DNA of 26,342 nucleotides, taken from assembly GCA_945787595.1 (NCBI GenBank), contig CALZJV010000032.1:1-26342 (forward strand). The letters run 5' to 3'. This document shows, one piece after another, positions 9,624 to 21,218 of the stretch; the stretch's first letter is position 1; each line of letters begins with the position of its first letter. The position numbers and the translations under genes are program-made. The notes below the pieces were generated by a model. That model saw nothing but the letters and a program-made list of their open reading frames with translations. It did no database searches and was not told the DNA's origin. Source of the DNA: an uncultured Desulfobacterales bacterium. Its GTDB lineage: Bacteria > Desulfobacterota > Desulfobacteria > Desulfobacterales > JAFDCJ01.

Positions 9624-10985
9624 TTACTTAATATACCTCTCAATGGTTTCAACCAGTTGTGCCGGATCAAAAGGCTTTGTAAGATAAGCCGAAGAACCGG
9701 CTACTTTGCCTTTAACCTTATTGATAATACCATCCTTGCTGGTCAGCATGATGACCGGAATATACTTAAACTCTGGATTTTCCCTGATAATAGATAGTAT
9801 CTGATAGCCGTCCATCTTTGGCAGGATGATATCCAGCAGGATTAGATCGGGTTTGGCTTCATTTAACCTGCTCAAAGCCTCAAGCCCATCTGCTGCCTCT
9901 ATAATTTCAAAACCTTTCTGACTTAGCGTAATTGATATGACCTTGCGAATTGTTGAACTGTCTTCTACGACAAGTATTTTTTTTCTCATCTTGTCGTGTA
10001 ATGATTTAATGGTCGAATCGCTGTCATTATCGATGGCCGGCAACTCATTGGATAAAAGTGATCCATTGGAGGCCATGTGTTTCAGCAATACATCCAATTG
10101 GTTGGAATAAAATTGCTCTCCGGGGACAAGCTTTGAGGCAAGGTCCAGATGGTTTAGTGCGTCTTCATAGTTATCCATGTTGAGATAGACCATACCCAGC
10201 CAATAGTGCGCTTGGGTATTTTTTTCTCTTTCTATGACCCGGGTATATCTAACAACCGCCTCTTTCAGGATCTTTTCGTTGCCGGTGTGTTCCAACTCAA
10301 AAAAATTATTATGGATGAGTAAATGGCACCCGCAGTATGGGCAAGTAACAGCATCACTTTCCAATGGCACCCAGCAGAACGGACATCTATGGAAAGGATC
10401 CTCATGCAATCCGTTTTTCACCTGTTGGAATTTTTTAACCTCCTCCATGATTTCCGGATCATCCGGTGCAATTTTTTGCGCATTGTTTAATGATCCTGCA
10501 ACAGCCTTGAAATTCGCAGAAATTCTCGAAAACCATAACCAGGCCCTGTGATTTCGTTTATCCAGCTTTAAAATTTTACCTAACAGTAATTTTGCTTTTT
10601 TAAGGTGATACCCTTCAGCCTCCTGTATGGCCTCATCCAGGAGATCCGCTTGCTCGAGAAGTGCACCATTTTCATCGACATGGCGGGTGGAGTTAAGCAG
10701 GATCTGCATTAGCGGTGTATGAACTTTTCTTTCCGTTTGGCAGCTATCTTGTACTTCAGCCTGCGCATTTTTCCAGGAGATAATTCTGGTAGCCGCTTTT
10801 TCACCGTCCATACCATCGGCTTCAGCATTTACCAATTCCCCTTTGTTGATATAAAGATATCCAACTTTAGTTTTTGACTTCACCTTGAGGGTGCAAGTTT
10901 TTTGTTCCAGATTAATCAGCTGTAAAAAATTGGCAAGCATAAACCCGCTGATAAAAACGTTTGATTTTTCTTTTACAGAGTTCAT
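9624..10985 (-). CDS. DUF4388 / zinc ribbon / TPR / receiver-domain protein
   Basis: This is a multidomain protein of 453 residues and the first gene of the chemosensory operon. Residues 1-100 look like a DUF4388 (PATAN-type) domain: GFMLANFLQLINLEQKTCTL followed by GYLYINKGELVNAE. Residues about 110-190 resemble TPR helices, ending KIAPDDPEIMEEV. A zinc ribbon uses C201, C204, C215 and C218 (CPFC...CPYC). More TPR units follow at about 235-300. The receiver domain (335-453) has E341/D342, phospho-acceptor D385 in LILLDIILPK, a MLTSK threonine and a LTKPF lysine, so it should be phosphorylatable by CheA. DUF4388 is commonly joined to receivers in Desulfobacterota and myxobacteria and may bind partner proteins. 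The start at 10985 has only a weak ribosome-binding site. Confidence 0.88.
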   Translation of the reverse strand: MNSVKEKSNVFISGFMLANFLQLINLEQKTCTLKVKSKTKVGYLYINKGELVNAEADGMDGEKAATRIISWKNAQAEVQDSCQTERKVHTPLMQILLNSTRHVDENGALLEQADLLDEAIQEAEGYHLKKAKLLLGKILKLDKRNHRAWLWFSRISANFKAVAGSLNNAQKIAPDDPEIMEEVKKFQQVKNGLHEDPFHRCPFCWVPLESDAVTCPYCGCHLLIHNNFFELEHTGNEKILKEAVVRYTRVIEREKNTQAHYWLGMVYLNMDNYEDALNHLDLASKLVPGEQFYSNQLDVLLKHMASNGSLLSNELPAIDNDSDSTIKSLHDKMRKKILVVEDSSTIRKVISITLSQKGFEIIEAADGLEALSRLNEAKPDLILLDIILPKMDGYQILSIIRENPEFKYIPVIMLTSKDGIINKVKGKVAGSSAYLTKPFDPAQLVETIERYIK

Positions 10986-11013
10986 AAATTCTGTCCCATG
11001 ATCTCAGTTTCTG

Positions 11014-11043
11014 CCGGTTAATCCCGCTATTTAAATTAACCGG
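11014..11043. promoter_or_regulatory. Inverted repeat CCGGTTAAT-N12-ATTAACCGG upstream of the chemosensory operon
   Basis: Two perfect 9-bp arms (11014-11022 and 11035-11043) lie 29 to 58 bases upstream of the first gene of the minus-strand operon. They lie in the divergent space shared with the small plus-strand frame at 11138. The position fits an operator or a 5'-leader hairpin. No convincing sigma-70, sigma-28 or sigma-54 promoter was seen next to it. Confidence 0.4.
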
Positions 11044-11137
11044 TCTTATTCAGATAGATTGGGTTTTCGAAAACTCCTGATCCGCATAGGTGCTTCAGTC
11101 AAAGGTCGGCAGTCTACAGGTACCGGGAGGATAATCC

Positions 11138-11341
11138 ATGCTTGTGATTGATCAATTTAATAAAAGCAAAATTCATACCCATTATAAATTATTTCAATAT
11201 GTTATCGAAATTGATGAACTCAGGTTAGAAGTACCTAATCTTCACTATAACGTCTTTTGGCACTTTATCGAAAAACTTAAGAAAAAAAATTTAAGAGTTG
11301 AAATAGGGGTGATGATGACGATAGTTACAAACTATAATTAG
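11138..11341 (+). CDS. Small hypothetical protein, 67 residues
   Basis: I do not recognise this frame. It would encode 67 residues, rich in I/L/N/K, beginning MLVIDQFNKSK and containing VFWHFIEKLKKKNLRVEIGV. It has no signal peptide or clear membrane helix. The main support is a good ribosome-binding site (GGGAGG, 7 bases before the ATG) and the lack of any competing gene on either strand. Base composition is markedly more AT-rich than the neighbouring chemosensory genes. It is transcribed away from the chemosensory operon and towards the end of the diguanylate cyclase gene. It could equally be a chance frame. Confidence 0.35.
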   Translation: MLVIDQFNKSKIHTHYKLFQYVIEIDELRLEVPNLHYNVFWHFIEKLKKKNLRVEIGVMMTIVTNYN

Positions 11342-11451
11342 ATGCCATAAATGGAAAATTAATGACGGACTGAAAACTTCTATTCTGATAAGGTCGGAAT
11401 TGCTGATTCGGCCCGGCCGAAAAGACGCTTCCGCAGCAGCAGGTTGTGGCG

Positions 11452-11478
11452 ATAATGATTAAGGGAAAAAATCATTAT
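11452..11478. terminator. 9-bp hairpin at the 3' end of the GGDEF gene
   Basis: ATAATGATT (11452-11460) and AATCATTAT (11470-11478) are perfect complements with a 9-base loop, and the cyclase stop codon (11475-11477) lies inside the right arm. A second compact dyad, TTCGGCC-C-GGCCGAA, lies nearby at 11407-11421. One or both could end transcription from either side, since the small frame at 11138-11341 converges here. No clean U-run follows, so the call is tentative. Confidence 0.35.
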
Positions 11479-12404
11479 ACCGGCTGCGACAGGACGGGCC
11501 CTATAGATATTTTGTTTCGTCCCTTTTTTTTAGAAACATACATTGCGCTATCCGCACGGTGAACGAAACTTTTTATATCTTCATCAGTCAGATATTCAAC
11601 CACCCCAATGCTCACAGTTACTTTCAACGGTTTGGGATATGATAGCGCTTGAGTCTCATATTCGACCGCATGTCTTACTCTCTCGGCAACTGAAATCGCC
11701 ATTTCAAGCTCTGTTTCAGGTAGAATTATTGTGAATTCATCCCCGGCATACCTGTAGGCGGTGTCTTGCATTCTAATAGCTGATTTTATTATTTCCCCGA
11801 TACCGGCAAGGATCTTATCCCCGAAAAGGTGCCCGTATGTGTCATTCAATGATTTGAATTTATCGATATCCATCAGAATTAGGGCAAGAGGGCGAAAATA
11901 ACGATTGGATCTATCGACCTCTTGAGCGATATGCCTATAAAACTGTCTTGTATTAAAAAGACCTGTCAAATCGTCTCTAGTCGTTAGGTGGGTCAATTCT
12001 TCCATTTTTCGGCTATTTTCTTGTATTTCTGTGCGTTTTTTTAGCACGACGTTAATTCTAAGCAACAGATCTTCCAACCGTATCGGTTTAATAATCAAAT
12101 CACTTGCTCCACGGGCCATGGCATCTTCTATTGAGTAATCTAGAGAATAGCCCGTCATAATTATAACATCGGCTTTATAGTCATGCCTTATGATTTTGGT
12201 TAACTCTAAGCCGTTCATGCCTGGCAATTCGACATCCGTAAGAACAATGCCAATTTCTTGATTCTGGAGAATTTCAAGCCCCTCTTCGGCACTGATAGCC
12301 ATAAAAGATTCAAAACCTGATTTTTCAAGAAAAATGTGGATCAATTTACGTATTGCTTTGTCGTCTTCTACAACTAAAATTTTGGCTCTTATAACATCAG
12401 ACAT
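11475..12404 (-). CDS. Response regulator with GGDEF domain (diguanylate cyclase, PleD-like)
   Basis: With the start at 12404 the protein has 309 residues. The receiver (about 6-120) has E13/D14/D15, phospho-acceptor D57 in VLTDVELPG, T84 and K106. A helical linker leads to a GGDEF domain, which would make cyclic di-GMP from two GTP. The active-site motif is AGDEF, with Ala for the first Gly, a variant known to be active in some cyclases. The product-inhibition site RxxD (RMQD) lies five residues before it and is intact. DDLTGLFNTRQF and DIDKFKSLNDTYGHLFGD are typical. The ATG at 12404 begins right at the receiver; an ATG at 12464 or TTG at 12491 would add up to 29 residues with no domain, and none of the three has a strong ribosome-binding site. 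The gene is probably monocistronic. Confidence 0.9.
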   Translation of the reverse strand: MSDVIRAKILVVEDDKAIRKLIHIFLEKSGFESFMAISAEEGLEILQNQEIGIVLTDVELPGMNGLELTKIIRHDYKADVIIMTGYSLDYSIEDAMARGASDLIIKPIRLEDLLLRINVVLKKRTEIQENSRKMEELTHLTTRDDLTGLFNTRQFYRHIAQEVDRSNRYFRPLALILMDIDKFKSLNDTYGHLFGDKILAGIGEIIKSAIRMQDTAYRYAGDEFTIILPETELEMAISVAERVRHAVEYETQALSYPKPLKVTVSIGVVEYLTDEDIKSFVHRADSAMYVSKKKGRNKISIGPVLSQPV

Positions 12405-12854
12405 TTCAGATATCCCAATTCCATAAGAAAGATAAGAACGCTCATTATTTGTCTTCAGCTTCATCTTCAATTTAATGCGATAAGGCCTCAAATGATTATG
12501 GGTCTTTTTGTGATAAATTGAATGCTCAAAGAATGTATCAGACTTATTATCGGCAAATGGGGAAAATCCTTTAGGATTTGGTAAGGTTCTGCGGTCGACA
12601 ATATTTCATAAAGGGGGAATTCACTAGCAATTCGAATCATGGCAAAGGGTCAAATTATTAAATACATGTTTTGATGTATGGCTCAGATCGACGAAGGTGT
12701 TTTGAATTTTTACCTAATTTGAAGGATTTTTTGGGAAGAGATGTGCTGAGATCTTTATACCTGATGATTCGCGAAAACCAGCCCGGAGGAATAAGGGCCT
12801 CATTCTACAGGGCTGCCAGGCGCGCCCATGGATATGGCGAGGATTTTTTATATC
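12405..12854. other. Intergenic stretch between GGDEF and M50 genes
   Basis: No gene is supported here. A plus-strand frame at 12671-12880 (69 residues) has no ribosome-binding site, matches nothing I know, and overlaps the 3' end of the M50 gene. A small perfect dyad AAATCC-TTTA-GGATTT (12564-12579) is the only structured element seen. The stretch should contain the promoter of the GGDEF gene, but no clear -35/-10 pair stands out. Confidence 0.5.
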
Positions 12855-14475: not shown

Positions 14476-15120
14476 TCAGGTTAGATGCTGGAATCCAACA
14501 GAAACTTCGGCGGATTTAACTCCGAATACTCCGACGAAAAATCCGACGCATCCTCCCACCAAGTGGGCAAGGGGCACGGGGACCATGTTGGTATGGGTGT
14601 TGCCGACAAAAATGGTCAGGCCGGTGGCAGTCTCGTATAATATTTTTGCGACTAAGCCGCTGAGCAGTAAGGAAAATAAGGCCACCCAGATCCAGCTGCG
14701 AGATCGTATCTCCCGCTTGATGAAAAGGACCATCAGCAATGAGTAAAAGGCACAATCCAGTCCGGACAGTCCGCCGTAAATTATAAGACCCGGCATGCCC
14801 CACCAGATGACGACGGGAATGGAGATGGCGGATATCCCCACGGTTGCATAATATCTTTTTGGGTCCATGATTTCGCACAAAGATCCCAGAACTAGAAATG
14901 TAGTGGCGGACCAGAAGAGGTGATCGGTCGAAAGGTGCACCCAATGGCAGGTGATCAGACGCCACAGTTCATGAGGGACATGGGCGGATCGGTCATAGAG
15001 CAACTGAATTCGCAAGCTATAGGAAAAGTGGATGATCGCAGCCGCCACGGTGAGCAGCAGTGAGACGCAGGGGATGCGCCTCACTGACTGACCAACTATT
15101 TGAATACGTTTATAATACAT
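14476..15120 (-). CDS. Rhombosortase-like rhomboid-family intramembrane serine protease
   Basis: This is a compact rhomboid fold of 214 residues with about six membrane helices and no extra domains, the size of rhombosortases (GlyGly-CTERM proteases, RrtA type). The catalytic serine is S119 in YGGLSG and the partner histidine is H186 in PLAHLVGG. ELWRLITCHWVHLSTDHLFW matches the conserved W-R-x-x-T-x-H-x-x-H loop and helix. Known members cut the C-terminal sorting tail of secreted proteins in the inner membrane. The gene starts 6 bases after the stop of the VIT/vWA gene, and that protein ends in a Gly-rich stretch, a helix and a basic tail, so it is the obvious substrate. Both are likely transcribed from the sigma-54 promoter at 17273. 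An ordinary rhomboid protease is the alternative. Confidence 0.82.
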   Translation of the reverse strand: MYYKRIQIVGQSVRRIPCVSLLLTVAAAIIHFSYSLRIQLLYDRSAHVPHELWRLITCHWVHLSTDHLFWSATTFLVLGSLCEIMDPKRYYATVGISAISIPVVIWWGMPGLIIYGGLSGLDCAFYSLLMVLFIKREIRSRSWIWVALFSLLLSGLVAKILYETATGLTIFVGNTHTNMVPVPLAHLVGGCVGFFVGVFGVKSAEVSVGFQHLT

Positions 15121-15126
15121 AATTTT

Positions 15127-17127
15127 TTAGCTATTTTTCTTCCGGATTATGAGTCTCAGGCCGCCGAGGGCAGTCAAAACAAATGCCACGAGGCCGGTGA
15201 TAGGATCGATGGCGCCACCTCCACCCCCCAGCTTGGGTACTTTGAATTTAAAAGCCGGTTTTTTCTGGTCAACCCGGTAGTTTTTAACTGGCTGTTGCGA
15301 TCTTAAGGACCGAGCCTGCTGCTCCCGCGTGATGCGGGTCCGATTGCGCCTCTCGATTCCCCGATCGGCGAAAGCCGTGTCTGTGAGAACCACCATGGAG
15401 GTGTAATCGGTGACGATCTGATAGGTCAGACCAAGGTCCTTGATGGCGTCCTCCGACTCCGACACCGGCATCGTTCCGATCCTTTCCATGGCTTCGATTT
15501 TCTCGATGGTGGCCAGGGCCCAGAGCCTTTCCAGTTCCGGATTGTCCCCCTCAATGTCCGGAAATAAAAAGTCCGTTGTGTAGGTTTTGTCCTCTCCGGT
15601 CAGGTTGGCTTTGAGTGTAACCCGGGCACTTCCGCCCTTTTCATATTTTCCGAAGAATACAAGCTGCTGGCCGCGATAGACCTTTTTAAATGTATCATCG
15701 GTCATGTCGAAAACTTTCACGCCTGAAATTTTGATCTCGGCATCGAGAAGGGCTTCGTAATTGATTTTGCTGCCGGCCAGCAGGAGCTTGCCCATGATGT
15801 CATCGGTGTTTGAAATAGTGTCGTAAAATCCGCCGGTCGTTTGGGTAATGGTTTGCATCAAAGGCCAGTTGGAACTGTTTCCCAGCAAAAAGCCAAAAAT
15901 CCGGACGTCAACCTGCTGCAGTAACTTGTAAAATTCCTCAGGGTTGACGACACCCGTGTTGGTCACCGCGTCGGTAACGAGGATGATGTTCGCAGCGCGG
16001 TCGTCATCCAGATGTTTCAGCGCCAGGGAAAGGCCTGCGTAGAGGTTGGTGCTTCCGCCGGAGCTGAGCGAGTCGATCATCTCCCGCGCCTTGATCAAAG
16101 AGGCGTCGGATGCCGGCAGCCATTCACGTGTCAATTCAGCGGCTTGACTGGAAAACGTCACGATCCGAAATCGGTCGCCGGGTTTGAGTTTTTCCATGGC
16201 TTTCATGACACCGTGCTTAAAAGTTCCCATTTTGGATTGCATACTGCCGGAGACATCCAAAACAAAGCAATAGTCGGAACCGTTTGCCAGCGGTTTTAAA
16301 TCAAGGCCAGGCGTAATCACCATCATGAAGGTGCCGGGCTTGGCCGGATCGTCACGATAAGGGATGACTTCTATTCTGCCGGGCAGATCGTCCTGCAGGC
16401 GGTAGTAAAAAATGAAATCCCGGTTCAGACTCATATCCGTCAGCTGCATCTGCACGTTGTAATGATCTTCAGCCGGTCTGCTTATCTGAGCCGCTGCTTC
16501 GAATCCGGGTACACGCACGTCCTGGACAGGGTATGCTGATTTTAATTCTAGGTTTAGCGAAAATGTGTTTTCAACCTTGGCGTTGGTCGTCCAGAAGCTC
16601 ATGCCGGCTTCGTCGGTGCCGCCGTCTTCTAAGGGATAAAGGTAGCGGCCAATCCCGGTGTCGATGCCAAGGGGCTGGTAGTACAGAAATCGAATTTTGG
16701 TTTCATCATTGGCAGGCACCGGGTGGACTTTGAACTCAAAAGTATAAAACTCATTTTTTTCGGCAAGGCCCGCCTCGTTTCCCCGGCTCTTTTCCTCTGC
16801 ATAGATTTGCCGGGCTTTTTGTTTTTCCAGCACTTCGCCGCGGATTTCCCGTTCACCCACATATATAGTTACCTCCGATAAGCTTGCACTTTTGGGCAAT
16901 GGAAAACTGTAGATGGCCTCAAGGTCTTGACTGTTGGCGTTATAAAAAGTTTGGTGGACCTCGGTCATAGCAAAGCCGTTATTGATCACCACATTGACTT
17001 GATGGTCAAGTATCCGGATGGGCTGATGGCCGGAGCCGATAGGGGTAAGAATCCCGGCAGCCTGACTCACCGTCGGGGCCATCCCAACAAGTAGTATCAG
17101 AATAAAAAAAGCGATTTGTTTTTTCAT
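15127..17127 (-). CDS. Secreted VIT / von Willebrand factor A protein with GlyGly-CTERM-like tail
   Basis: This exported protein of 666 residues has a signal peptide at about 1-24 (hydrophobic run, then SQAAG). A VIT domain covers about 30-160, with FYNANSQDLEAIYSFPLP and the GEREIRGEVLEKQKARQIYAEE segment. A von Willebrand A domain starts at about 284, with an intact metal site: D291, S293 and S295 in DVSGS, T360 in GGST, and D386 in VTDA. The C-terminus has five glycines (634-638), a hydrophobic helix (about 641-660) and the basic end RKKNS. That three-part tail resembles the GlyGly-CTERM signal cut by rhombosortases, one of which is encoded next. VIT/vWA proteins of this kind are also known as sortase targets in marine proteobacteria, there with an LPXTG-type end. 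A surface-adhesion or protein-binding role is inferred. Translation starts at 17127 behind GGAGGGTAAC. Confidence 0.92.
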   Translation of the reverse strand: MKKQIAFFILILLVGMAPTVSQAAGILTPIGSGHQPIRILDHQVNVVINNGFAMTEVHQTFYNANSQDLEAIYSFPLPKSASLSEVTIYVGEREIRGEVLEKQKARQIYAEEKSRGNEAGLAEKNEFYTFEFKVHPVPANDETKIRFLYYQPLGIDTGIGRYLYPLEDGGTDEAGMSFWTTNAKVENTFSLNLELKSAYPVQDVRVPGFEAAAQISRPAEDHYNVQMQLTDMSLNRDFIFYYRLQDDLPGRIEVIPYRDDPAKPGTFMMVITPGLDLKPLANGSDYCFVLDVSGSMQSKMGTFKHGVMKAMEKLKPGDRFRIVTFSSQAAELTREWLPASDASLIKAREMIDSLSSGGSTNLYAGLSLALKHLDDDRAANIILVTDAVTNTGVVNPEEFYKLLQQVDVRIFGFLLGNSSNWPLMQTITQTTGGFYDTISNTDDIMGKLLLAGSKINYEALLDAEIKISGVKVFDMTDDTFKKVYRGQQLVFFGKYEKGGSARVTLKANLTGEDKTYTTDFLFPDIEGDNPELERLWALATIEKIEAMERIGTMPVSESEDAIKDLGLTYQIVTDYTSMVVLTDTAFADRGIERRNRTRITREQQARSLRSQQPVKNYRVDQKKPAFKFKVPKLGGGGGAIDPITGLVAFVLTALGGLRLIIRKKNS

Positions 17128-17272
17128 GTTACCCTCCTTTTCCGGATTTCCCGGAGATTTAAAATACTATACGCGACAAGCCAATCAAATTTAAAATTTT
17201 GCCCCTGACGGAATCCCAAGGCGCTAATAAATTTGAAAGATCAAATCTCGGTTGATCGGCACATATCGAAAA

Positions 17273-17288
17273 AGCAACACGTGTGCCA
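17273..17288 (-). promoter_or_regulatory. Sigma-54 (RpoN) promoter of the VIT/vWA-rhombosortase pair
   Basis: Read on the minus strand the site is TGGCAC-ACGTG-TTGCT, matching the consensus TGGCAC-N5-TTGCW with the invariant GG and GC ten bases apart. The start of transcription should fall near 17262, leaving a 5' leader of about 135 bases before the ATG at 17127. The divergent neighbour encodes a sigma-54 activator, which strengthens the call. Confidence 0.85.
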
Positions 17289-17297
17289 GGAATTAAA

Positions 17298-17331
17298 TTG
17301 ATAAGCGGTTATCAAATTAACCATTTGATAA
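17298..17331. promoter_or_regulatory. Three TTGATAA half-sites upstream of the sigma-54 promoter
   Basis: TTGATAA (17298-17304), its complement TTATCAA (17309-17315) and a third copy TTTGATAA (17324-17331) form two overlapping perfect dyads, with spacers of 4 and 5 bases. They begin 10 bases upstream of the -24 element, which is closer than usual for an enhancer. They could bind the divergently encoded activator or a second regulator. Confidence 0.45.
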
Positions 17332-17668
17332 ATTGAGAAATAATAAAAAAATCGAGGAAATTTCGAAGTAAAATCGAAACAGATAGGTCGATAAAACTAT
17401 ACTTTTTTTGAATACATATATTCAATAATGGTATAAAATGGATAAAAGTTGACAATTATTTCGATAATAAATTGAATTATATATAATTATAAACTTATAA
17501 GGAGTAGATAACATGGCCACAGCAGACTGGTTAATGCGATGTTTGAATTGGAAAAATTACTAAAACCTTGGATATCAGAAATAAATCACAATATTATCAA
17601 ATAATTAAAAAGCCTATACAATATATGTATATCCCTGATTCAGATAAGCAGGCAAATGAAAGGATTAT
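17332..17668. other. AT-rich leader region of the sigma-54 activator gene, with a possible 16-residue ORF
   Basis: This stretch is very AT-rich and full of dyads: TTGAATA-N4-TATTCAA (17408-17425), the perfect palindrome AATTATATATAATT (17475-17488), and TATACA-N5-TGTATA just before the gene. A TTGACA at 17449-17454 could be a -35, but its -10 (TTGAAT at 17472-17477) is poor. A 16-codon frame at 17513-17563, MATADWLMRCLNWKNY, follows an excellent AAGGAG at an 8-base spacing. It may be a leader peptide or a small protein, or a relic. IHF or H-NS-like binding would fit the composition but was not shown. Confidence 0.4.
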
Positions 17669-19204
17669 ATGGTGGCCATTTTAGAACCGGAAAAACGCTC
17701 TTTTTTGACATCCGTCACTAGGGTCAGCTATGCAAACCCTTTCCTTCCCGAGCGTATCGAATATGAGCGGCAAGCCCTGGGAGCTGAATTTGACGAATCA
17801 CATGCCAACTGGAACCTTTTGGGGGACGACCCGGAAACGCATCAAATCAACACAACGAAAATTGCACAGCGAGCTTACCCCATCATTGCAGGGTTCCAGG
17901 CGCAGTTGAAAAAGGGGGTGGCGGCAACCGGTCAGGAAATTCAGCTTTATGAAGATACGGTTCTTTTTTTGCTCTTTTATAATTACGCCCAGAGATTCAA
18001 GAAAAGCATTATCGACCCGAAAAAGGGACGGACTTATGACTACTTTGAAGAGTTTTTCGAGTACTGGTCGTTCTTTTTTAACATTTCCGGCTACAATCTG
18101 CCGCAGAAAGGGGAGGCGGCACACATTTTTGCCTGTTCCTTTCAAGTACGCCGGGCTTTCTATTATATTTTCAGGGCCATCATCGGGCGTTCGTCAGTGG
18201 CAGCAAACTTGCGAGCCATGGTATGGACGTCTATCTTTACCCACGACATGCGCCGCTATCGCCGCTCCTTTTATAAATGCATGGGTGATTTTAGCACCTT
18301 GATCATCGGACCGACGGGATCTGGCAAAGAGCTTGTTGCTCGCGCCATAGGTCTTTCGCGGTACATCCGGTTTGATCCCGAGTCCTTGACCTTTGAAAAA
18401 GATTTTTCAGAAACCTTTTTCCCTATCAACCTTTCGGCATTGCCTTTGACCCTGATCGAGTCGGAGTTGTTTGGCCATCGGCGTGGGGCATTCACCGGCG
18501 CCTTGGAAGATCGCAAGGGATGGCTGGAAGTTTGTCCGTCGCAAGGCAGTGTCTTTCTGGATGAAATCGGGGAGTTGGACGCCCTCATCCAGGTGAAACT
18601 GCTCAGGGTGATCCAGGCACGGACATTTCAACCCCTGGGATCGACAAAGTCTCATAGCTTCAAAGGCAAGATTGTGGCGGCCACCCATCGCGACCTCCAT
18701 TACGCCATGGAGCAGGGAGAATTCAGAAAGGATTTTTATTACCGGCTATGTTCAGACATCATCACGACACCATCTTTGAACCAACAAATCCGGGAATCTC
18801 CTGAGGTGTTGTGGGATCTGATCGGTTACATTTCCCAGCGGGTTGCAGGTTCGGAATGGGAGGAGGTCGCCGGGGAAGTGCAATCCTGGATTGGAGATCA
18901 CCTTGGCATGGAATACTCTTGGCCGGGCAATATTCGTGAACTGGAACAGTGCGTCCGCAACGTGATGATCCGGCGGGAGTACCATCCCTCGGGGAATCTT
19001 GTCGCGAGGATCGACGAGCGGCTCCCGGTTGGATTTCAGGAAGGGTCGCTCAGCCTCGAGGAATTCTGCAGTCTTTATTGTACCCACGTTTACTCACGTG
19101 CCGGTTCATTCGTAGAGACGGCGCGACGCTTGAAAATCGACAGAAGAACAGTGAAGAAATACGTGGATACAGGTTTTTCCGCAAGGGGACGCGTAAAGCA
19201 ATAA
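17669..19204 (+). CDS. Sigma-54-dependent transcriptional activator (AAA+ enhancer-binding protein)
   Basis: The protein has 511 residues. The AAA+ core (about 190-425) shows Walker A GPTGSGKE, the sigma-54-contacting loop GAFTGA in ELFGHRRGAFTGALEDRKGW, Walker B SVFLDEIGEL, the sensor region ATHRDL with FRKDFYYRL, and SWPGNIRELEQCVRN. A helix-turn-helix end (about 465-505: SFVETARRLKIDRRTVKKYV) would bind DNA. The first ~190 residues are not a receiver, GAF, PAS or FHA domain that I can name; FTHDMRRYRRSFYKCMGDFSTLIIGPTG leads into the AAA+ part, as in a group of deltaproteobacterial activators. The ATG at 17669 has AAAGGA 4 bases upstream. It is divergent from the VIT/vWA and rhombosortase genes, whose promoter is of sigma-54 type, so these are its most likely targets. 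The signal it senses is unknown. Confidence 0.93.
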   Translation: MVAILEPEKRSFLTSVTRVSYANPFLPERIEYERQALGAEFDESHANWNLLGDDPETHQINTTKIAQRAYPIIAGFQAQLKKGVAATGQEIQLYEDTVLFLLFYNYAQRFKKSIIDPKKGRTYDYFEEFFEYWSFFFNISGYNLPQKGEAAHIFACSFQVRRAFYYIFRAIIGRSSVAANLRAMVWTSIFTHDMRRYRRSFYKCMGDFSTLIIGPTGSGKELVARAIGLSRYIRFDPESLTFEKDFSETFFPINLSALPLTLIESELFGHRRGAFTGALEDRKGWLEVCPSQGSVFLDEIGELDALIQVKLLRVIQARTFQPLGSTKSHSFKGKIVAATHRDLHYAMEQGEFRKDFYYRLCSDIITTPSLNQQIRESPEVLWDLIGYISQRVAGSEWEEVAGEVQSWIGDHLGMEYSWPGNIRELEQCVRNVMIRREYHPSGNLVARIDERLPVGFQEGSLSLEEFCSLYCTHVYSRAGSFVETARRLKIDRRTVKKYVDTGFSARGRVKQ

Positions 19205-20194: not shown

Positions 20195-21136
20195 TCAATA
20201 ACCAAATCTTCGTATTGCCTTTGTGTCTTTACGCCAGTTTTTCTGAACCCTCACAAAAAGCTTTAAATAAACCTTGGTCCCCAGCATATGTTCTATTTGC
20301 TCACGGGATCGTATACCGATTTGCTTCAATTTGCTGCCTTTTTTCCCGATGACGATGCCTTTTTGAGAGTCGCGTTCCAGGTGAATGGTCGCCTCGATCT
20401 TCACCTGATTCCCCCTGTTTTTTTCTTTAAAAGCGTCCACTGTGACAACCGTGGCATAGGGAATTTCTTCACCGGTCAACCTGAAAACCTGCTCACGGAT
20501 CAATTCAGCGACGAGAAAGCGTTCGGATACATCCGTGAGGGTATCCTCGGGAAAATAGGGGGGCCCTTGGGGCAAAGCCGATACCATAGCCAGTATCAGC
20601 TCGTTAACCTGGATGCCATTTTTAGCGGATATCGGAACCACTTCACGAAATGGATACGTTTCGGCCCACTCTTCGATGTTTTCAAGTAACCCGTGTTTTT
20701 CAACCAGATCTATTTTATTCAGCGCAAGAACTACCGGTTTGCTCTGGTCCTGAAGACGTTTGACAAGGAAGCGTTCGGCTTCGATATCCGGTTGGGCAAC
20801 ATCGATGACCACCAGGATCAGCGGTTGGGCAACATCGATGACCACCAGGATCAGATCGGCATCAGCCACCGCGGAAAAGGCGATATCGACGATTCGCGTG
20901 TTCAGCTTGTCTTTGGCGTGAAATACTCCCGGCGTATCGAAAAAAATCATTTGTGCATCCGGTCTGTGCAGCACACCCAGAATCCGATTTCGCGTTGTTT
21001 GAGGTTTTTTTGAGGTGATGGAGATTTTTTGACCGAGCATCCGGTTTAGCAGGGTGGATTTACCCGCATTGGGCGTGCCGGCAATCGCAATATAGCCGGA
21101 TCTAAAATCGGAATAAGGTTGGTTTTTGTCTGTCAT
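20195..21136 (-). CDS. era: GTPase Era, with an 11-residue internal tandem duplication
   Basis: This essential GTPase binds 16S rRNA near its 3' end during 30S assembly; it has 313 residues here. G1 is GTPNAGKS (20-27), the switch region has TSKKPQTTRNRI, G3 is DTPG (67-70), and G4 is NKID (140-143). G5 is ISAK. The C-terminal KH domain has IVIGKKGSKLKQIG, and the protein ends FVRVQKNWRKDTKAIRRFGY, typical of Era. Residues 95-105 (LILVVIDVAQP) are repeated exactly at 106-116, so one copy is extra relative to the family, inserted between the fourth beta strand and the next helix. The ATG at 21136 is chosen; a longer frame to 21193 would translate intergenic heptamer repeats. It follows EngB on the same strand with a 548-base repeat-filled gap. 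Confidence 0.95.
   Translation of the reverse strand: MTDKNQPYSDFRSGYIAIAGTPNAGKSTLLNRMLGQKISITSKKPQTTRNRILGVLHRPDAQMIFFDTPGVFHAKDKLNTRIVDIAFSAVADADLILVVIDVAQPLILVVIDVAQPDIEAERFLVKRLQDQSKPVVLALNKIDLVEKHGLLENIEEWAETYPFREVVPISAKNGIQVNELILAMVSALPQGPPYFPEDTLTDVSERFLVAELIREQVFRLTGEEIPYATVVTVDAFKEKNRGNQVKIEATIHLERDSQKGIVIGKKGSKLKQIGIRSREQIEHMLGTKVYLKLFVRVQKNWRKDTKAIRRFGY
20789..20853. repeat. 33-bp in-frame tandem duplication inside era
   Basis: Bases 20789-20820 recur exactly at 20822-20853 (32 identical bases, period 33). The identity of both copies implies a recent event or an assembly artefact. The reading frame is kept. Confidence 0.95.
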
Positions 21137-21149
21137 TGGCTTACCGGAC

Positions 21150-21177
21150 TGTTTAGGTTTCAGGTTTCGGGTGTCAG
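21150..21177. repeat. Four heptamers just upstream of era
   Basis: Reading the plus strand, TGTTTAG, GTTTCAG, GTTTCGG and GTGTCAG follow each other without gaps, 14 bases upstream of the era start codon. They therefore occupy its 5' leader. They are the same family (CTGAAAC on the other strand) as those at 19962 and 21611. Confidence 0.75.
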
Positions 21178-21218
21178 CCCAGCCGCCGGCCAAAAAGACG
21201 GCCGGTCAAATCGAAAAA

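What the first reader, a model, noticed from the sequence alone, without database searches (positions are those of the whole stretch)
14476..19204. RpoN-controlled VIT/vWA surface protein with its own rhombosortase and activator
Three genes and one promoter fit together: a secreted VIT/vWA protein with a Gly-rich/helix/basic tail, a rhombosortase-like protease 6 bases downstream, a near-perfect sigma-54 promoter for that pair, and a divergent sigma-54 activator. Established knowledge: rhombosortases process GlyGly-CTERM tails, and in other proteobacteria VIT/vWA proteins are dedicated sortase targets. Inference: this is a one-substrate processing system under its own regulator, comparable in logic to sortase- or exosortase-linked systems.
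Basis: partly seen in the sequence, partly recalled or inferred. Interest (0 to 1): 0.75.

Follow-up and report, generated by a model that had tools for sequence, protein, structure and literature searches.

The report
Surface-protein sorting cassette with own switch
Three neighbouring bacterial genes encode a secreted adhesin-like protein, the membrane protease predicted to trim its tail, and a gene switch facing away from them; the set recurs in distant bacterial phyla, and the switch's relatives often sit beside genes that rebuild membrane lipids.

Summary
In detail: a VIT/vWA protein with a GGGGG-helix-basic tail, a rhombosortase 6 bases downstream, an exact sigma-54 site upstream, and a divergent sigma-54 activator. 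Dedicated adjacent rhombosortase/target pairs, and VIT/vWA targets, are already in print (PMC3237569); the activator link is what I add. The activator is divergent to vWA in 13 of 20 vWA genomes of one order sample (relatives named Desulfobacterales) and in 17 of 40 activator loci from the phylum of an Opitutaceae genome. Sigma-54 sites (10 or more of 12 positions) lie between them in 12 of 19 and 4 of 16 loci of two activator groups, about 0.3 expected in each. The tail was found once per genome in 10 of 11 relatives. The activator family is wider than this locus: other members sit beside phospholipid acyltransferase (LplT-Aas-like) or fatty-acid megasynthase genes, and five loci combine acyltransferase with rhombosortase or vWA. 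Since a Vibrio rhombosortase product appears joined to phosphatidylethanolamine, I propose, as inference, that this regulator family couples surface-protein lipidation to phospholipid remodelling. Its N-terminal domain has no Pfam match; cleavage, regulation and ligand are untested.

The parts
14476..15120 (-). rhombosortase (rhomboid-family intramembrane serine protease); GLSG serine 119 and histidine 186 invariant in relatives
   Evidence: TIGR03902 88 bits over cut-off 84; PF01694; invariant columns in 16 sequences, the window's included; catalytic roles recalled
15127..17127 (-). secreted VIT/vWA protein, 666 aa; MIDAS-type residues D291, S293, S295, T360, D386 invariant in relatives
   Evidence: PF08487, PF13768, PF00092; alignment A1 of 18 sequences; MIDAS assignment recalled
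17056..17127 (-). signal-peptide-like N-terminus of the vWA protein
   Evidence: sequence read directly; no predictor run
15130..15228 (-). C-terminal sorting-type tail GGGGGAIDP-hydrophobic stretch-RKK, residues 634-666
   Evidence: sequence; invariant glycines; once per genome in 10 of 11 relatives
17273..17288 (-). sigma-54 (-24/-12) promoter TGGCACACGTGTTGCT for vWA-rhombosortase
17293..17320 (.). inverted repeat, 12-bp arms around CCGC, just upstream of the -24 element; possible regulatory site, not seen shared by relatives
17318..17330 (-). IHF-like match TATCAAATGGTTA
   Evidence: 4 matches in the window against 2.04 expected, so weak; consensus recalled
17669..19204 (+). divergent sigma-54 activator: helical N-terminal domain, AAA+ with GAFTGA, Fis-type HTH
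   Evidence: PF00158; alignment A2 of 20 sequences; HTH read from sequence
17669..18283 (+). N-terminal domain of the activator (residues about 1-205), all-helical, without a Pfam match at E <= 0.1
   Evidence: AlphaFold2 mean pLDDT 86.9, pTM 0.85; no PDB match with E <= 0.001

Best explanation
The locus is a dedicated surface-display cassette. The divergent activator, when switched on, drives the sigma-54 promoter at 17273-17288 and so the two-gene unit vWA-rhombosortase. The vWA protein is exported through its signal peptide and held in the inner membrane by its glycine-rich/helix/basic tail. The neighbouring rhombosortase cuts at the glycine run, probably leaving the protein joined to a phospholipid head group, and the protein then moves to the cell surface, where its VIT/vWA part binds something. 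Shown by sequence: the gene pair, the tail, the promoter, and conservation of the layout across phyla. Inferred from Vibrio cholerae VesB: cleavage, lipid attachment and surface location. Inferred: that the adjacent activator is the regulator.
For: Family matches. Layout activator(-)/vWA(+)/rhombosortase(+) in L001-L004 and L008; activator plus vWA before a contig end in L010 and L011. 13 of 20 vWA genomes of an order sample, and 17 of 40 activator loci from the phylum of an Opitutaceae genome, have the activator divergent to vWA; 16 of those 17 also have a rhombosortase, for which TIGR03902 is the best NCBIfam model each time, over its cut-off in 8 and 63.5-82 bits in 8. vWA and rhombosortase: both in 19, rhombosortase alone in 3, vWA alone in 1, neither in 123 of 146 genomes (related genomes, so the Fisher p of 9e-20 overstates). 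Sigma-54 sites of 10 or more of 12 between activator and vWA: 12 of 19 and 4 of 16 loci, 0.26 and 0.31 expected from shuffles; reached in 1.0% of 1241 random segments of vWA loci. Tail once per genome in 10 of 11 relatives; one rhombosortase over cut-off in 9 of 11, none in 2. VesB chemistry: PMC6219818 (abstract and passages).
Against: The curated GlyGly-CTERM model TIGR03501 does not recognise the window's tail. The same model passes its cut-off at places other than the vWA gene in G007, G008 (two places, one in a 315-aa frame) and G010 (it also passes in 1 of 14 control genomes), so a second target in G008 is not excluded. The tail profile was built from the window and six of the relatives, so a diverged second tail could be missed. 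The activator is missing from 3 of the 20 vWA genomes, not seen adjacent in 7, and absent from L005, L006, L007 and L009 as held. In 7 of 16 vWA loci of the second activator group the best site scores 7 or less. Five activators in the phylum of G008 have no vWA nearby. T2SS secretin is seen over cut-off in 19 of 22 rhombosortase genomes but also in 116 of 146 overall, so it does not discriminate. No cleavage, expression or localisation data.
Confidence: 0.78

Rival explanations
1. The activator is a membrane-phospholipid regulator, and the vWA-rhombosortase pair is one branch of a lipid-remodelling regulon: its N-terminal domain responds to (lyso)phospholipid or acyl-chain state; it turns on lysophospholipid re-acylation, fatty-acid synthases or, here, a protein-to-phosphatidylethanolamine transfer system.
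For: Acyltransferase genes within 1 kb of the activator: 13 in 160.9 kb, against 3 in 766.6 kb farther away. The profile was built from 9 of these genes, but profiles from 2 or 3 of them still find 10 or 11 held-out near genes and the same 3 far ones, and a threshold of E 0.1 adds none. Five examined resemble acyl-[ACP]--phospholipid O-acyltransferase, three of them also LplT, all under the curated cut-offs. 10 of 40 loci of the second phylum have such a gene next to the activator; of 17 fetched loci without vWA on the Desulfobacterales side, 7 have a ketoacyl-synthase megasynthase divergent and 2 an acyltransferase (Pfam run on three megasynthases). Acyltransferase together with rhombosortase or vWA and the activator in L105, L118, L175, L196, L203. 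Sigma-54 sites of 10 or more of 12 before 5 of 10 divergent acyltransferase targets, 0.21 expected. G272 and G372 hold two paralogues each, one at vWA, one at an acyltransferase. VesB carries a glycerophosphoethanolamine, possibly PE (PMC6219818 passages).
Against: No ligand or fold evidence: best Foldseek PDB match E 0.8. 26 of 81 activator loci have none of the tested genes within 700 bases, and some neighbour mreB or a carboxylase. None of 7 megasynthase loci has a site scoring 9 or more. The 17 non-vWA loci are 14 of 51 such matches, mostly the best-scoring, and 3: not a random sample.
Confidence: 0.3
2. The rhombosortase only cuts the tail, releasing the vWA protein to periplasm or medium, with no lipid attachment.
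For: Rhomboid proteases normally hydrolyse (recalled); in Vibrio the enzyme that attaches the ethanolamine lipid is not settled (PMC6219818 passages).
Against: VesB mass data in Vibrio; acyltransferase genes in some of these clusters.
Confidence: 0.2
3. The activator acts elsewhere in the genome and its position here is neutral synteny.
For: Family members have varied neighbours; activator absent from 3 of 20 vWA genomes.
Against: Divergent arrangement plus sigma-54 sites in the shared intergenic region across distant lineages and two activator groups.
Confidence: 0.08

Closest known systems
Dedicated GlyGly-CTERM/rhombosortase pairs (Haft and Varghese 2011, PMC3237569)
   Same: Single tail-bearing target beside rhombosortase; VIT/vWA proteins with GlyGly-CTERM tails (their Figure 3C legend); protease and target no more than one gene apart in 16 of 21 single-target genomes (their count)
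   Different: Curated tail model TIGR03501 misses the window's tail; the word 'sigma-54' does not occur in that paper
Vibrio cholerae VesB/RssP (PMC6219818, PMC13393428)
   Same: Rhombosortase acts on Gly-Gly/helix/basic tails
   Different: One enzyme with six tail-bearing proteins, four of them known or putative proteases (abstract); no dedicated activator known to me
Gram-negative sortase with LPXTG VIT/vWA target (TIGR03788/TIGR03784)
   Same: VIT/vWA substrate with an adjacent dedicated sorting enzyme (PMC3237569); I recall, untested here, that it also has its own regulators
   Different: Sortase instead of rhombosortase; window protein 224.6 bits, cut-off 551.65
PEP-CTERM/exosortase systems with sigma-54 control (PrsR; RpoN-dependent pepA, PMC9850573)
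   Same: Sorted surface protein under RpoN
   Different: Exosortase; window activator scores 152.3 bits against cut-off 502.6 for TIGR02915
LplT-Aas lysophospholipid remodelling (PMC11416262)
   Same: Genes of this type neighbour paralogues of the activator
   Different: None found in the window by the acyltransferase profile

Membership tests
rhombosortase (TIGR03902) | score over curated cut-off | tested here: met
   88 bits against 84
rhombosortase (TIGR03902) | rhomboid Ser/His pair in GxSG and a late helix | tested here: met
   S119 in GLSG and H186 invariant in 16 sequences; roles recalled
rhombosortase (TIGR03902) | co-distributed with a tail-bearing target | tested here: met
   19 of 22 rhombosortase genomes also have the vWA protein
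GlyGly-CTERM protein | Gly motif without Cys, transmembrane stretch, terminal basic residues | tested here: met
   sequence and alignment; criteria as in PMC3237569
GlyGly-CTERM protein | match to curated model TIGR03501 | tested here: not met
   no hit at E <= 1 for the window; among the vWA tails of 11 relatives only that of G009 is over cut-off
GlyGly-CTERM protein | cleavage and ethanolamine-lipid modification after rhombosortase action | not testable with these tools
   needs mass spectrometry
sigma-54 activator (bacterial enhancer-binding protein) | Sigma54_activat AAA+ domain with GAFTGA loop | tested here: met
   PF00158 152.8 bits; GAFTGA at residues 273-278
proteobacterial sortase target (TIGR03788) | score over curated cut-off | tested here: not met
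   224.6 against 551.65
PEP-CTERM response regulator PrsR (TIGR02915) | score over curated cut-off | tested here: not met
   152.3 against 502.6
RtcR (NF038308) | score over curated cut-off | tested here: not met
   182 against 650
known fold for the activator's N-terminal domain | significant match to a solved structure | tested here: inconclusive

The most novel reading that the evidence does not exclude
A cross-phylum family of sigma-54 activators with an uncharacterised helical N-terminal domain reads the state of membrane phospholipids and couples it to their use: lysophospholipid re-acylation, fatty-acid megasynthases, and transfer of one VIT/vWA protein onto phosphatidylethanolamine by rhombosortase.
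Probability: 0.27. Interest if true: 0.82.

Novelty: new variant of a known kind. Interest (0 to 1): 0.6.

Why it matters
Why a rhombosortase is kept for a single surface protein, and when it is made, has no answer in the papers I saw. A conserved divergent activator gives a direct genetic handle on both. If the activator family also governs phospholipid acyl remodelling, it would support phosphatidylethanolamine as the rhombosortase co-substrate and reveal a bacterial programme that ties protein lipidation to membrane-lipid repair.

Tried and rejected

Rows dropped before counts. One search used only the 52 loci with a vWA, acyltransferase or ketoacyl-synthase target on the opposite strand within 700 bases; its two activator groups are split at 480 bits, not by the tree. 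In one search, 40 of 44 matches were fetched; left out were G010 (already held as L010), two pieces in G267 and one in G382. In one search, 5 of 6 matches were fetched anew (the sixth is L008). Of 65 matches, 14 are beside vWA or rhombosortase; of the other 51, 14 were fetched, mostly the best-scoring, plus 3. In one search, L009, L119 and L121 were left out as cut gene starts. Random segments overlap and have a fixed length of 550 bases: 10 or more of 12 in 1.0% of 1241 (vWA loci), 0.6% of 350 (acyltransferase loci) and 5.8% of 242 (megasynthase loci); 11 or more in none, none and 1.7%.
Full report
What is there. On the minus strand the window encodes a 666-aa secreted VIT/vWA protein (15127-17127), followed after six bases by a 214-aa rhomboid protease (14476-15120). 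Divergent to them, on the plus strand, is a 511-aa sigma-54 activator (17669-19204). The protease passes the rhombosortase model TIGR03902 (88 bits, cut-off 84); the vWA protein scores 224.6 bits with the sortase-target model TIGR03788, well under its cut-off of 551.65. Pfam gives VIT, VWA, Rhomboid and Sigma54_activat over their cut-offs, and nothing for activator residues 1-205. In 18 vWA sequences, the window's included, the tail LGGGGGAIDP is invariant; in 16 rhombosortases, likewise, the GLSG serine and the late histidine are invariant.

Promoter. TGGCACACGTGTTGCT at 17273-17288 (-) matches the recalled consensus TGGCACRNNNNTTGCW exactly, the only such match in the window. In the five nearest loci that also hold the activator (L001-L004, L011), a site of 11 or 12 of 12 positions likewise lies upstream of the vWA start, at varying distance.

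Conservation of the layout. A scan of one genome per species with the vWA alignment gave 11 loci, with record titles naming Desulfobacterales, Desulfococcaceae, Deltaproteobacteria, Spirochaetes, Opitutales/Opitutaceae and an unnamed bacterium. Activator, vWA and rhombosortase stand in the window's layout in L001-L004 and L008; L010 and L011 show activator and vWA before the contig ends; L005, L006, L007 and L009 show vWA and rhombosortase without the activator in the stretch held. In 9 of these 11 genomes exactly one rhombosortase passes the cut-off; in eight it lies on the vWA contig downstream of that gene (in G006 about 2 kb on), and in G011 it lies beside the 3' part of a vWA gene on another contig. 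G007's copy beside vWA is under the cut-off (55.5 bits), and G010's contig ends inside the vWA gene.

Wider sample. In 146 genomes of the order of G001 the vWA protein (E <= 1e-60) is in 20, rhombosortase (E <= 1e-15) in 22 (21 over cut-off), both in 19. They are adjacent on one contig in 17. The activator family (E <= 1e-100) is in 54 of 146 and is divergent to the vWA gene in 13 of the 20: G001, G003, G004, G012, G013, G043, G054, G079, G082, G092, G111, G121, G122. In G094 it is divergent to the rhombosortase, the vWA gene lying at the start of another contig. Three vWA genomes (G029, G048, G064) have no family member. The genomes are related, so the Fisher values overstate the strength. 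In the phylum of G010, titled Opitutaceae, 41 of 194 genomes have the activator; of 40 loci fetched, 17 have vWA divergent to it. In 16 of those 17 a rhombosortase is found by a profile built from the trio loci; TIGR03902 is the best NCBIfam model for each of the 16, over its cut-off in 8 and between 63.5 and 82 bits in 8. In the phylum of G008, 6 of 40 genomes have the activator; none of the 5 newly fetched loci has vWA.

Sigma-54 sites. Between activator and vWA, sites of at least 10 of 12 positions occur in 12 of 19 loci of the high-scoring activator group (0.26 expected from shuffles; six of the 12 are the window and its five nearest loci) and in 4 of 16 of the other (0.31 expected). Random segments of the same vWA loci reach 10 in 1.0% of 1241 draws and 11 in none. 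The promoter is therefore conserved in two distant groups, but not universal: in 7 of the 16 the best site scores 7 or less.

Dedicated pair. A profile of the tail (alignment A5 of seven tails) finds one convincing match per genome in 10 of 11 relatives, each time the vWA protein (E 2.4e-4 or better); every other match has E 0.3 or worse. In the eleventh, G010, the vWA gene is cut by the contig end. Six of the seven tails come from these same genomes, so a diverged second tail could escape. With the curated GlyGly-CTERM model, places over the cut-off occur in 4 of 11 genomes: the vWA tail in G009, and other places in G007, G008 (two, one in a 315-aa frame) and G010; it is over the cut-off in 1 of 14 control genomes too. 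The one-substrate reading is thus supported, not proved, in relatives; the window's own genome could not be checked. Loci of the second group carry a different tail, typically GSGPVGP-short helix-RRR.

The activator family. A tree of 54 activators, made before the second-phylum loci were fetched, splits into two well-separated sides. One holds the window and seven other vWA-linked rows plus 18 proteins of unknown context; the other mixes 11 trio-linked rows (one, L118, with rhombosortase only) and 17 other rows. Neighbours of non-trio members were then examined. Of the 17 fetched on the Desulfobacterales side, 7 have a ketoacyl-synthase megasynthase divergent to the activator within 700 bases and an eighth, L133, at 1.1 kb (Pfam run on L132, L133 and L136). 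Over all 81 activator loci, 13 have a PF01553-type acyltransferase gene within 1 kb, against 3 such genes in the remaining 766.6 kb; profiles made from only 2 or 3 of these genes recover 10 or 11 held-out near genes and the same 3 far ones. The five such genes that I examined resemble NCBI's acyl-[ACP]--phospholipid O-acyltransferase and three of them also LplT, under the curated cut-offs. Sigma-54 sites of at least 10 of 12 lie before 5 of 10 divergent acyltransferase targets (0.21 expected), but before none of 7 megasynthases. Some clusters join the two themes. L105 has vWA, rhombosortase and an MFS-acyltransferase gene in a row, the last overlapping the rhombosortase. L196 has a vWA frame (437 aa, no tail in that frame), rhombosortase (85.6 bits), an alpha/beta hydrolase and an LplT-Aas-like gene in a row. 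L118 has rhombosortase divergent to the activator and the acyltransferase directly after the activator. L175 has the acyltransferase divergent to the activator, then a rhombosortase (86.4 bits). L203 has the LplT-Aas-like gene divergent to the activator with a vWA frame after it and no rhombosortase in the stretch held. G272 and G372 each hold two activators, one beside vWA and one beside an acyltransferase. Against this, 26 of 81 loci have none of the tested genes within 700 bases.

Mechanism. In Vibrio cholerae, VesB is cut by rhombosortase and its new C-terminal glycine carries a glycerophosphoethanolamine, possibly from phosphatidylethanolamine (PMC6219818, abstract and passages); processing suffices for membrane association, while a further secretion signal is needed to cross the outer membrane (PMC13393428, abstract). 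LplT and Aas return lysophospholipid to diacyl form (PMC11416262, abstract and first introduction paragraphs). Putting these together, I infer that the activator family responds to phospholipid state and that the window's cassette is its protein-lipidation branch. The step from neighbourhood to sensing is inference; the N-terminal domain (AlphaFold2 pLDDT 86.9) has no significant match to a solved structure, and a middling second look neither shows nor excludes kinship.

What is known and what is new. Adjacency of rhombosortase and a single target, and VIT/vWA proteins with GlyGly-CTERM, LPXTG or PEP-CTERM tails, were described in 2011 (PMC3237569, passages and section 12). RpoN control of a PEP-CTERM gene is published (PMC9850573, abstract). 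I saw no paper that links rhombosortase or GlyGly-CTERM with a sigma-54 regulator in the listings of searches, or with phospholipid remodelling in one search (beyond PMC6219818 itself); the library is incomplete, and searches returned hundreds to thousands of papers of which only the first 8 or 10 were listed. The pair is a member of a known kind; its conserved activator and the activator family's lipid neighbourhood make it a new variant.

Noticed in passing
20789-20854: A perfect 33-bp tandem duplication inside the era-like GTPase gene (20195-21193, -) repeats LILVVIDVAQP in frame; real or an assembly artefact.
   Followed up: partly
L203:1-5378: One open frame holds an alpha/beta-hydrolase part and a vWA part downstream of an LplT-Aas-like gene; the vWA similarity continues past its stop.
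   Followed up: partly
L011:7032-8290: The vWA gene is split over two overlapping frames near the contig end; left as it is.
   Followed up: no
L128, L132-L138: Paralogues of the activator stand divergent to ketoacyl-synthase megasynthases, three of which also match nitronate monooxygenase by Pfam, without recognisable sigma-54 sites in the 7 scanned.
   Followed up: partly
L105-L124: A second tail type GSGPVGP with a very short hydrophobic stretch and RRR end replaces the GGGGG type in related vWA proteins.
   Followed up: partly
L183, L186: Activator family members stand upstream of mreB-like genes on the opposite strand (L186 by sequence likeness only).
   Followed up: no
9624-12491: Two response-regulator genes, one joined to repeat-like sequence and one to a GGDEF-like domain, lie downstream of the cassette; read from sequence only.
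   Followed up: no
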